A stretch of 64,000 bases of DNA from Helicobacter marmotae (lineage in GTDB: Bacteria; Campylobacterota; Campylobacteria; Campylobacterales; Helicobacteraceae). Both the position numbers and the translations under genes were made by a program. Every line of letters starts with the position of its first letter. Position 1 is the stretch's first letter. This document shows, piece by piece, positions 32,400-38,691 of this stretch. The notes beneath the pieces are model-generated. The model searched no databases. It was not told where the DNA came from and worked only from the letters and a program-made list of their open reading frames with translations. Location: contig NZ_NXLR01000007.1 in assembly GCF_003364255.1 (NCBI RefSeq), forward strand, positions 1-64,000, in the 5' to 3' direction.

Positions 32400-35300
32400 T
32401 TAAACTTCAAGCACCTCATATTTAGGCATACCCCCTATCACCTCCACACTCCTTACACTCATCTCTATCACGCTTAAAAGCAAGTTAAGCGCATATCTCC
32501 CGCCTTTTAGCCCAGCTAATGCCCCCTCTTGGCTCACATATAAATTCGGGTCATTAACTATCCCGCTTTTAGTATCAACACTCACTGCATAGCGATCCAT
32601 TATCCACTCTATCGCACTTTTGCCATTCACTACATATTCATACGCCTTTGGGGGGATATTCACAATAGCAATTTTCTCATTAAAGAGAATAGTATCTGTG
32701 ATACCTTTTGTGCGAAATTTCAACTTATCTATCCTAAAGTCATTCTCGCCTAGATTCGCTAACTCTGCTGCTGCCATCTCTCTCACATTGTTAGCAAATA
32801 GCCCCTTAGCACTCTCTTTTGATTCTCTTAAATCCTTTGCCAAACACGCAAAAGCCCCACAAGGAGCGCTAAAATCGCCCTTTTCTACCCAAGCCTCATA
32901 GTTTAAATGCAGGCTTGCTAGCTCCCTCCCTGCTTTCTCAAAGCCAAAAAAGTCTTTCATAAAAGGAATTCTAGGCAGCATCTTGCTCAAATTATCTTTA
33001 TACTTTGCCTTATAAGTGGGGTGGTTAAGCAAGGCATAAATATAATAAAATATAGAATCTTTGCTTATCTCACAGCGATAAATTGCAGATTCTGCACTCT
33101 CGGCTCGGTCATTTAGGCTTACTAAACTCCCTTCGCCTCGAGCTTGAAAAGCTTTGCTTTCTTTAGTAAAACTACAATTTCTCATCTGTGATAAAAGCAA
33201 AGTAGAATCCCCTGCATTGCAAGGTGCTTTATACTCTGGGTGAATTTCCCAAAATGCTTTATACACTTCCCTAAATCTAGCTAACGCCTCATCTCTTATC
33301 GCGTCTTTGCGGTGATAAAAGCTTGATTGTGGATTATCCTGCATTTGCTTGTATGTAGCCTCACTTATGCCCTTAAGCAAAGCTTCTTCTTTAGAGATTA
33401 TAGAATCAAGCTCTTCATAATAATAGAGGGGGAAACATTGGGAATTTTGCAAAAGAGCATATTCTATTATATAGCTAGTCATAAGAGCCGAAAATTCTTT
33501 ATTGCTTCCTCTGCCTACTACACAAATAGTTAAATTTAATAAATTACAACTAGGATACAAGAGGGACATTTTGTAGGTGCTATGAAATAAACTTTTATCA
33601 TAATATGTTGGCATTTTGCAAAATGGGCGATAAAATGAACTTTGAATCTTTTCAGAATCAAACACAATTCTAAAATTCTTACTATAGCTGCTTTTAAGAT
33701 TATCTGTCCATTTAATCTTTGTCTCATCCATAATTGGCTGATAACCAGCATCTTGCTCCCTTTTAGCTACCTCCGCATTGTAATTTGCTATCATAAAACG
33801 CATATTAGATTCTAGTTCTTTGCGTGAGAAGTTATATATCCAAGAATCGCGATTACTTTTAACACCAGCAGAAAACATTTCAAAAATATCTACATAATCC
33901 TCTTGCAAGAGTTCAGAATCTAGCTTATCTTTATTCTTTATATTCTTAAGTGTTTGCAGAGATTTGAGTTTGCTATCAGTATTCCCTATAGGCATAAATG
34001 CCATAAAGCTATAATCTCGCTGATTAATCCAATCATAATCTTTATTGGGCTCTATTTTACTCCAAAGCCCTTGCGTATCTAAAGTTTCTATAGACTTAAG
34101 GGTGTTTAAAGTATTTAGTTTCTCTTCCCTAGATTTATAATCCCCAATATCATAGTAATAAATTGCTGCTTTGGAATGAGGTACTCCCTTAGAATGGCTC
34201 GTCATTTTGTCATTCTGAGCTTGAGAATCAAGCGAAGAATTGCTGTTGGCGACTAGTGATTCGGGTAGAGATTCTTCGGGCATAAAGCCCTCAGAATGAC
34301 AAAGTAATTTCCCTTGCGGGTAGCAAAGTTTGTCATTCTGAGGGAGTGAAACGACCGAAGAATCTCTCTTAGCGACTAGTGATTCTTTAAGAGATTCTTC
34401 GCTTTCTTGTGAAAGCGAAGAATCACAAACTTCGAAAATTTCTGGTGAATCAAATAGCAATTCTTCGCATCCACTTTTAATAAGTAGCACAATAGCCGCA
34501 GGTGTCTTAGAGCCCGAATCAAAGAATCCTCCTCCCTCTTTTTTTCTAAGCTCACCTGCTGTTCCTGCATTCCCCCGTAAATTAAAGATATAAATATAGT
34601 CAAATTCAGATGCTAAAGACGCCCTAAAGCCATCATCAGTGTTGTTATCAATAAAGCTACCATTTGTGATAAAGCCTATAATCCCTCCGCTCTCACCAAT
34701 TCTATCGCTACAATAACGTATAGCAAGTTTAAAGCTATCATAACTTGCATTTGTTGTGCTTGTTGCAATAGATTCTTGCTGATAAGTCTCTGCGATTCTT
34801 TGCTCTAAATATGGATATTCTGTATTTTGATTATTATCATTGGCACTTTCTTGCCCGGTCGAATATGGAGGATTCCCTACAAAGACTTTAAAATCGGTGT
34901 TTTTAAATTCTGTGATTTTTTGATAATTTTTTTTAAAATATTCTCCCTGATAACTCTCACTCTCTCGCTTAGCAATATGCACCTTAAAGCCCTTAGAATC
35001 TGGCGTGTAGGTATTAAAAGTGTCGGTAAAAAGGAGATTATCCATAAGGATATAATCTTGCTCTTGTGGATTTGCTTTATCCAAGTCTCCTATGTGGTTA
35101 GGGATTTTGTCATTCTTCGCTTGATTCTCAAGCGAAGAATTGCTTTTAGGATTGCTAGAAACTCTGCCACTATTGTCATTCTGAGGGAGTGAAACGACCG
35201 AAGAATCTCTGTGGGCGACTAGTGATTCCTTTAGAGATTCTTCGCTTCGCTCAGAATGACAAAGTAACCGCCTTTCTAGTGTTTCTGTTAAGGAGTCTTT

Positions 35301-37731: not shown

Positions 37732-38691
37732 TTAGATACATGGGGGGGGGGGCATAAATTCCTTGTGGTTGGTGTTTTGTGGGATTAGTTGCGCTATTTT
37801 ATTTGCTAGAGTGAGGGCGTTTGTTGTAGGAGCAATACATAATTCATTACTCTTTGCATCTTCATTATCTATCTTTGAACCTACTTTTTTATCAGAGCAT
37901 ACGGCAAATACTTCATAATGCTTACTTTCACTTTGGGAGAAAAATTCTTTGATTATTTGGTTAGTCAAAGCCAAGCTTGGCGTGAGGAAAAGTGCTATCT
38001 CGCCACTTTGGACTATATAATCAATGCTACGAATAGCAAGCAAACTTTTACCCGTGCCACAAGCCATAATAACCTTGCCTCGCTCATTTTCTTGCTCTAA
38101 AAAATGGCTTTTAATGGCTTCAAACGCCTCAAGTTGGTGAGGACGTAGCGATTTTTTGCCTTTAATTTGTATGCTATTTTCAATATTATTTAGCTCCAAA
38201 GCCTCCCAATTAATACTTAAATTTTGGAGTTCATTATAGCCATAAGCTTGCCCCTTGGCTTTATCGGCGTTTGCATTAGTTTCTAATGCCTTTAACACTT
38301 CATTACTTATACCTTTGCAAGTGCAAAAAAGCAGAGATTGAGAAATCTTAATCACTGCATCGCCCTTATTATTAAGAATGCTATTAATGCCTAAAAAATT
38401 CTTTACATCACCAAGACTTAACGTATGTTCTGGCTTAAACGCCTTGCACTGCACAGAAATAAACTCATCATTATGGGTCTCAATCATTATATCTATGCCA
38501 AAATCAGCTCGATTAATATGATACTTATCGCTAAATTCACTCCATAAATAGACTTTTTTAATATGAAATGTATTTTGCAACACCATTTCCCTTTGCAAAA
38601 TGGCTTTAATCAACTTCTCAAACTTCTTTCCCTGCTGTGCATTACTTTGCGATTCACTCAATAACGCATTCACCACTTCAGCAAATCCCAT
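37732..38691 (-). CDS. Type ISP-like restriction-modification enzyme, 5' part (nuclease, helicase start); phase OFF
   Basis: The 319-residue 5' part of the enzyme continued at 32400-37571. An Mrr-like nuclease domain comes first, with FGIDIMIE and ISVQCKAF supplying the D...QxK catalytic pattern near residues 67 and 81-83. An SF2 helicase begins at LRPHQLEAFEAI near residue 182, with motif I MACGTGKSLLAIR near residue 208. The frame ends six codons after entering a C11 tract. Removing one C joins it to a frame encoding NDEAHRTAG (motif II) and then the rest, giving about 2096 residues. Mrr-helicase-methylase in one chain is the plan of LlaGI/LlaBIII-type enzymes. Start 38691 is chosen for the GGAGG six bases upstream. 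Confidence 0.85.
   Translation of the reverse strand: MGFAEVVNALLSESQSNAQQGKKFEKLIKAILQREMVLQNTFHIKKVYLWSEFSDKYHINRADFGIDIMIETHNDEFISVQCKAFKPEHTLSLGDVKNFLGINSILNNKGDAVIKISQSLLFCTCKGISNEVLKALETNANADKAKGQAYGYNELQNLSINWEALELNNIENSIQIKGKKSLRPHQLEAFEAIKSHFLEQENERGKVIMACGTGKSLLAIRSIDYIVQSGEIALFLTPSLALTNQIIKEFFSQSESKHYEVFAVCSDKKVGSKIDNEDAKSNELCIAPTTNALTLANKIAQLIPQNTNHKEFMPPPPCI
37742..37752 (-). repeat. C11 phase-variation tract in the R-M gene
   Basis: Eleven G on the plus strand. With 11 C the coding frame reads MPPPPCI-stop; with 10 (or 13) it reads MPPPHVSK and continues through DEAH to the methyltransferase. The gene is therefore OFF in this assembly. Confidence 0.9.

What the first reader, a model, noticed from the sequence alone, without database searches (positions are those of the whole stretch)
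32400..38691. Giant type ISP-like R-M gene switched OFF by a C11 tract
Two adjacent minus-strand frames, 38691-37732 (Mrr-like nuclease D...QxK, helicase motif I) and about 37740-32400 (DEAH, helicase motif VI, DPFTGTGTF, NPPY), are one gene interrupted at 11 consecutive C (37742-37752). Deleting one C by eye yields a continuous frame of about 2096 codons, with the DEAH box falling exactly in the region between the two called frames. Single-chain nuclease-helicase-methylase enzymes (LlaGI/LlaBIII class) restrict and methylate, so switching would change both phage resistance and the methylome.
Basis: partly seen in the sequence, partly recalled or inferred. Interest (0 to 1): 0.85.

Follow-up and report, generated by a model that had tools for sequence, protein, structure and literature searches.

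The report
Slippage-switched single-chain phage-defence enzyme gene
A Helicobacter carries a giant one-piece DNA-cutting and DNA-marking defence enzyme whose gene contains a run of identical bases that puts it out of frame in this copy; relatives carry such runs at or near the same spot in both frame states, so the enzyme looks built to flip on and off.

Summary
Minus-strand frames 38691-37732 and 37784-32400 overlap across C11 (37742-37752) and together encode every domain of a Type ISP enzyme (Mrr nuclease, split SF2 helicase, coupler, adenine methyltransferase, specificity domain; best solved relatives LlaGI and LlaBIII). As assembled the gene is out of frame. The main new evidence is comparative: all 7 close Helicobacter orthologues covering the site have a 10-14 base G or C run in the same helicase lobe, 4 out of frame and 3 in frame across it. 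The runs differ in base and one lies in another loop, so they arose at least three times. Some other Helicobacteraceae ISP genes carry runs elsewhere; 8 ISP loci outside the family have none. Slippage-switched Type IIG and III genes are known; I found no report for Type ISP, so this is a new variant of a known kind. Real switching, and tract length in living cells, are not shown. The gene also carries two in-frame blocks of a palindromic dispersed repeat, expanded in this genome, which also enlarges RNase R.

The parts
37732..38691 (-). First frame: Mrr-type nuclease and start of the helicase; ends about ten bases after the tract (longest ORF starts at 38712)
   Evidence: AlphaFold model with 4xqk as best PDB match
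38697..38701 (-). GGAGG Shine-Dalgarno-like site 5 bases before ATG 38691
   Evidence: read
38443..38493 (-). Nuclease residues D74 and Q88-C-K90, invariant in 23 aligned sequences
38047..38064 (-). Helicase motif I, ACGTGK
37742..37752 (-). C11 tract, presumed slippage site
32400..37784 (-). Second frame, 1794 codons stop to stop: rest of helicase, coupler, methyltransferase, specificity domain
37584..37595 (-). DEAH box (helicase motif II)
36147..36518 (-). ISP coupler domain PF22240
35934..35960 (-). Methyltransferase motif DPFTGTGTF
35104..35790 (-). In-frame block of dispersed palindromic repeats in a methyltransferase loop; no predicted fold
34863..34874 (-). Methyltransferase motif NPPY
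34193..34404 (-). Second in-frame repeat block, after the methyltransferase
32535..33890 (-). Type ISP C-terminal specificity domain PF18135
   Evidence: 2.7e-90
38839..39355 (-). Repeat cluster just upstream, between lspA and this gene; in H. cinaedi the gene follows lspA closely
31514..32395 (-). Repeat cluster just downstream; 32254-32395 is 96% identical to 35642-35782

Best explanation
The locus is a phase-variable Type ISP restriction-modification gene. DNA slippage at a G or C run inside the first helicase lobe changes the reading frame. In one of three length classes the whole chain is made: it methylates one strand of an asymmetric site, and on unmodified DNA it translocates and cuts after collision with a second enzyme. 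In the other two classes translation stops soon after the tract, leaving the nuclease and a fragment of the helicase without DEAH box, coupler, methyltransferase or specificity domain, so restriction and modification are lost together. The copy read here is out of frame. Shown: domains, frames, tract, conserved tract region, both frame states among orthologues. Inferred: that length changes in the population, that the full chain is active, and the biological effect.
For: Domain set and LlaGI/LlaBIII matches. Among 32 ISP loci over the Pfam cut-off in 31 of 121 Helicobacteraceae genomes, 7 of 7 in the window's clade that cover the site have a tract in this helicase lobe: window C11, H. cinaedi C13, H. 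japonicus G11 and G060 C11 out of frame; H. canis G12, G061 G14 and G008 G10 in frame across it. Clade support 100/100. G versus C, and the different loop in G008, need at least 3 tract births; 4 by parsimony on that tree (my count). H. cinaedi has a second C13 in a methyltransferase loop. Six other ISP loci in the family have coding-region runs and one has an upstream run. 0 of 8 ISP loci outside the family have a G or C run of 7 or more. Codon position 3 changes most and position 2 least on both sides of the tract, and the 1794-codon frame has no stop. Precedents: H. pylori Type IIG JHP1272 (PMC3936762, passages) and C. jejuni cj0031c (PMC4889913, abstract).
Against: No reads or second isolate were available, so length change is not observed, and tract length in an assembly can be wrong by a base. 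Three of the seven clade members have other breaks: an in-frame stop in H. japonicus, frame breaks not at a long G/C run in G061 and G008. So ISP genes also decay; in 13 H. pylori-type loci there is no tract and most have frame breaks. A run somewhere in a 6.3 kb gene is not rare in this genome. Loops may collect runs only because they tolerate them. The large repeat-encoded inserts could impair the methyltransferase.
Confidence: 0.84

Rival explanations
1. Decaying pseudogene: the frame break is one step in loss of the gene, as in the H. pylori ISP genes.
For: H. pylori 26695 HP0667-0669 has two frameshifts not due to repeats (PMC3936762, passages). Several family members have extra breaks.
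Against: The break is exactly at a G/C run; the rest is open for 326 and 1794 codons; three clade members are in frame across the tract; codon-position bias is kept on both sides.
Confidence: 0.08
2. Sequencing or assembly error at the homopolymer; the strain really has a stable in-frame gene.
For: Homopolymers of 11 are error-prone in assembly (general knowledge); the genome is a 61-contig draft.
Against: Tracts of 10-14 in the same region in six other genomes are not an error, whatever their exact length. An error would change the present state, not the switch.
Confidence: 0.1
3. Leaky expression: transcription slippage or ribosomal frameshifting on the tract makes some full-length enzyme whatever the DNA length.
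For: The frames overlap across a long C run.
Against: Nothing direct. It does not explain why relatives differ in base and loop. It could coexist with switching.
Confidence: 0.12
4. Restriction-only switch: with the tract out of frame, translation starts again inside the second frame and gives a methyltransferase without nuclease, so modification persists.
For: HP0669 alone, the methyltransferase-specificity half of the H. pylori enzyme, methylates GGANNAG in E. coli (PMC3936762, passages). The second frame is intact in the window and G060.
Against: No convincing internal start: the SD-like hits are weak, mostly GAGG before GTG, and one lies in conserved coding sequence. In H. cinaedi the second tract also breaks the methyltransferase half.
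Confidence: 0.12

Closest known systems
Type ISP enzymes LlaGI and LlaBIII
   Same: All five domains in the same order; E=1.6e-225 and 1.9e-200 for the second frame; LlaBIII is also the best structural match of the first.
   Different: Here the gene has a long C run in the helicase, and two large repeat-encoded inserts around the methyltransferase.
H. pylori Type ISP HP0667-0669 / JHP0612-0613
   Same: Helicobacter ISP genes that are out of frame (PMC3936762, passages).
   Different: Those frameshifts are not due to repeats (HP0667-0669) or are called authentic (JHP0612-0613); the 13 loci that I take for the H. pylori group (from genome size and number; names withheld) have no long run and form a separate clade.
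Phase-variable Type IIG genes JHP1272/HP1353-1354 and C. jejuni cj0031c
   Same: Single-chain R-M genes switched by homopolymer length, with methylome change; for cj0031c also phage restriction.
   Different: Type IIG lacks the ISP translocase (general knowledge); the window's tract lies inside the helicase.
Rickettsia palindromic elements and other coding MITEs
   Same: Small palindromic repeats fused in frame inside conserved genes (PMC2229807, passages); the unit here folds at z=-5.8.
   Different: Different host; blocks are longer and mosaic, up to about 1.4 kb. Sequence homology and insertion mechanism not tested.

Membership tests
Type ISP R-M enzyme | N-terminal Mrr-family nuclease | tested here: met
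   Mrr_cat_2 4.2e-24; invariant D74, Q88, K90 in 23 sequences; 4xqk best fold match
Type ISP R-M enzyme | SF2 helicase-like ATPase | tested here: met
   ResIII split over both frames, Helicase_C 8.8e-11; DEAH
Type ISP R-M enzyme | Coupler domain | tested here: met
   PF22240 5.1e-33
Type ISP R-M enzyme | N6-adenine methyltransferase | tested here: met
   Eco57I 8.2e-8; DPFTGTGTF and NPPY; the methylated base itself was not tested
Type ISP R-M enzyme | C-terminal specificity domain | tested here: met
   PF18135 2.7e-90
Type ISP R-M enzyme | All in one polypeptide | tested here: inconclusive
   Two frames as assembled; the H. canis orthologue is one 2038-codon frame
Type ISP R-M enzyme | Asymmetric site, one-strand methylation, translocation-coupled cleavage | not testable with these tools
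   Needs enzyme assays and methylome
SSR phase-variable gene | Long repeat whose length sets the frame | tested here: met
   C11 with overlapping frames
SSR phase-variable gene | Tract kept in relatives, in both frame states | tested here: met
   7 of 7 clade members covering the site; 4 out, 3 in frame
SSR phase-variable gene | Length varies within a strain | not testable with these tools
   No reads or second isolate; 0 matches to the flank in viral contigs
Rickettsia-type coding palindromes | Dispersed palindromic unit, in frame in conserved genes | tested here: met
Rickettsia-type coding palindromes | Homology to RPE sequence | not tested
   No RPE sequence was compared

The most novel reading that the evidence does not exclude
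The tract separates the two activities: in the out-of-frame state the second frame still yields a free methyltransferase-specificity protein, so cells lose restriction but keep their mark and can switch back on without cutting their own unmethylated chromosome. Repeated birth of tracts in the helicase lobe, rather than near the start codon, would then be selected for this safe switch.
Probability: 0.12. Interest if true: 0.75.

Novelty: new variant of a known kind. Interest (0 to 1): 0.52.

Why it matters
It would extend slippage-driven switching to the translocating single-chain class of R-M enzymes, where restriction and modification sit in one chain. Repeated birth of tracts in one helicase lobe suggests selection for variability itself. 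It makes a question testable: how a cell survives switching on a cutter when its own genome is unmethylated.

Tried and rejected
Whole-genome census in the script box: not available, so tracts were counted by pattern. Internal start for the second frame: only weak SD-like hits; not adopted. Second copy of the tract flank in viral contigs: 0 matches. AlphaFold of the methyltransferase stretch: mean pLDDT 50.6; the repeat-encoded stretches are near 30, read only as 'no predicted fold'. H. canadensis SSR paper (PMC2823697, passages): no occurrence of 'restriction' in the main text. PhasomeIt (PMC6321876, passages): phase-variable R-M groups in Campylobacter, 'type ISP' absent from the main text. 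Searches for phase-variable Type ISP: (listings; passages of PMC3936762, PMC12707154 and PMC10073500); none reports it, but subscription papers and REBASE were not searchable. Searches for coding palindromes in Helicobacter: (listings); none seen. The exact peptide 'HSERSEES' is in no held paper. A weak PF22240 place in G059 (C1:17128, below cut-off) was left out of the 32 loci; of the 18 order-level genomes over the cut-off, I fetched all 8 loci outside the family and none below the cut-off. One of 37 repeat-core copies was not placed.

Full report
What is there. The gene lies on the minus strand of a 1.96 Mb, 61-contig Helicobacter draft genome (genus from its relatives). The first frame is open 38712-37732; the ATG at 38691 has GGAGG five bases before it. 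The second is open 37784-32400, 1794 codons. They overlap around 11 C at 37752-37742.

What it encodes. Pfam finds Mrr_cat_2 and the first part of ResIII in frame one; the rest of ResIII, Helicase_C, ISP_coupler, Eco57I and Type_ISP_C in frame two. PADLOC's best model covers both frames in order. Solved relatives are LlaGI and LlaBIII. The first frame alone folds with good confidence (mean pLDDT 80.1) and its best PDB match is LlaBIII. In alignment A1, D74, Q88 and K90 are invariant over 23 sequences. This is the Type ISP domain set listed in the abstract of PMC4666363.

Is the tract a switch? A G or C run of 10 or more is near-absent by base composition (1 in 200 window shuffles) but common in this genus: 53 to 124 per genome in 11 genomes, 114 here. 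So the run alone proves little. PF22240 is found in 31 of 121 family genomes, with 32 places over the cut-off; 31 stretches were fetched and the window added. In the window's clade (support 100/100 for the seven) 7 of 7 loci covering the site have a tract: window C11, H. cinaedi C13, H. japonicus G11, G060 C11, H. canis G12, G061 G14, G008 G10. An eighth relative, G083, has a contig that starts just 3' of the site. The first four are out of frame across the tract, the other three in frame. Six lie just before the strand (P)KIIIFSTYQSID; the G008 run is in an earlier loop. A C run cannot slip into a G run, so at least three births are needed; I count four on the tree. Recombination between species could alter that count.

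Elsewhere in the family. Coding-region runs occur in six other loci: G079 (G12, methyltransferase), G105 (G10), G108 (AG repeat), G016 (GA repeat in one locus, G14 in another) and G044 (G17); G063 has G9 just upstream. Of 8 ISP loci outside the family, none has a G or C run of 7 or more. Tract sites are therefore several, and the helicase-lobe site belongs to one clade.

Against decay. Codon position 3 differs most and position 2 least on both sides of the tract in all six comparisons (for example 0.27/0.22/0.51 before and 0.30/0.18/0.53 after, versus H. japonicus). Such divergence cannot exclude recent loss. H. japonicus, G061 and G008 have further breaks not at a long G/C run; this counts against a perfectly kept switch.

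Mechanism. Out of frame, the product ends about ten bases after the tract, before the DEAH box; nothing downstream would be made from the normal start. I looked for internal starts and found only weak ones. Full loss of both activities is therefore the default reading. HP0669 alone is an active methyltransferase, so a restriction-only switch is not excluded.

A second layer. The gene holds two in-frame blocks (35104-35790, 34193-34404) of a dispersed repeat, and similar clusters sit directly on both sides. The unit is palindromic (z=-5.8). The exact 24-base core has 37 copies in this genome, 0 in 10 genus relatives, and occurs in 9 of 121 family genomes, this one included. Of 36 copies that I could place, 15 lie in open frames of 300 codons or more, all 15 in the same orientation relative to the frame; 10 in frames of 100-299 and 11 in none. 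In aligned ISP enzymes the blocks fall in variable loops; G060 has a similar unit at the second position. RNase R of this genome is 1324 codons with about 600 inserted between its first and second OB domains, including a GIY-YIG domain; in 10 of 10 genus relatives it is 648-698. This resembles the coding palindromes of Rickettsia (PMC2229807, passages) and is recorded here as a side finding.

Verdict. It is a new variant of a known kind: slippage-switched R-M genes are known, Type ISP enzymes are known, and the combination was not found in my searches.

Noticed in passing
L135:3998-7969 (G000 contig C17): RNase R gene of 1324 codons with about 600 in-frame extra codons (repeat blocks and a GIY-YIG domain) between OB domains; 648-698 codons in 10 of 10 genus relatives.
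   Followed up: partly
window 15501-16430, 31514-32395, 38839-39355, 62438-62802, and 34193-34404, 35104-35790: Dispersed palindromic repeat clusters, expanded in this genome; copies elsewhere sit in frame inside large ORFs (M99 peptidase, MmeI-like and Eco57I methylases, glycosyltransferases, a formyltransferase).
   Followed up: partly
window 4352-4362: A second C11 tract (coding strand), a few codons into a TonB-dependent receptor gene (2040-4409, minus); in frame as assembled, likely another phase-variable gene.
   Followed up: partly
L041 / L076: H. cinaedi ISP gene has two C13 tracts, one in the helicase lobe and one in a methyltransferase loop, both out of frame.
   Followed up: partly
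L097, L098, L099, L087, L102, L104, L100: ISP genes of other Helicobacteraceae carry runs at other sites, including AG/GA dinucleotide repeats near the specificity domain and a G9 upstream.
   Followed up: partly
L074 oriented 5330-5470: ISP gene of G061 has a different palindrome-like repeat (CGTCATTGCGAGG...) at a loop where its frame breaks.
   Followed up: no
window 42801-43808: Alpha-1,3-fucosyltransferase gene (FucT_N, Glyco_transf_10) next to prfA.
   Followed up: no
window 11603-12193 and 12454-13045: Two neighbouring stretches 73% identical over 594 bases, overlapping adjacent ORFs.
   Followed up: no
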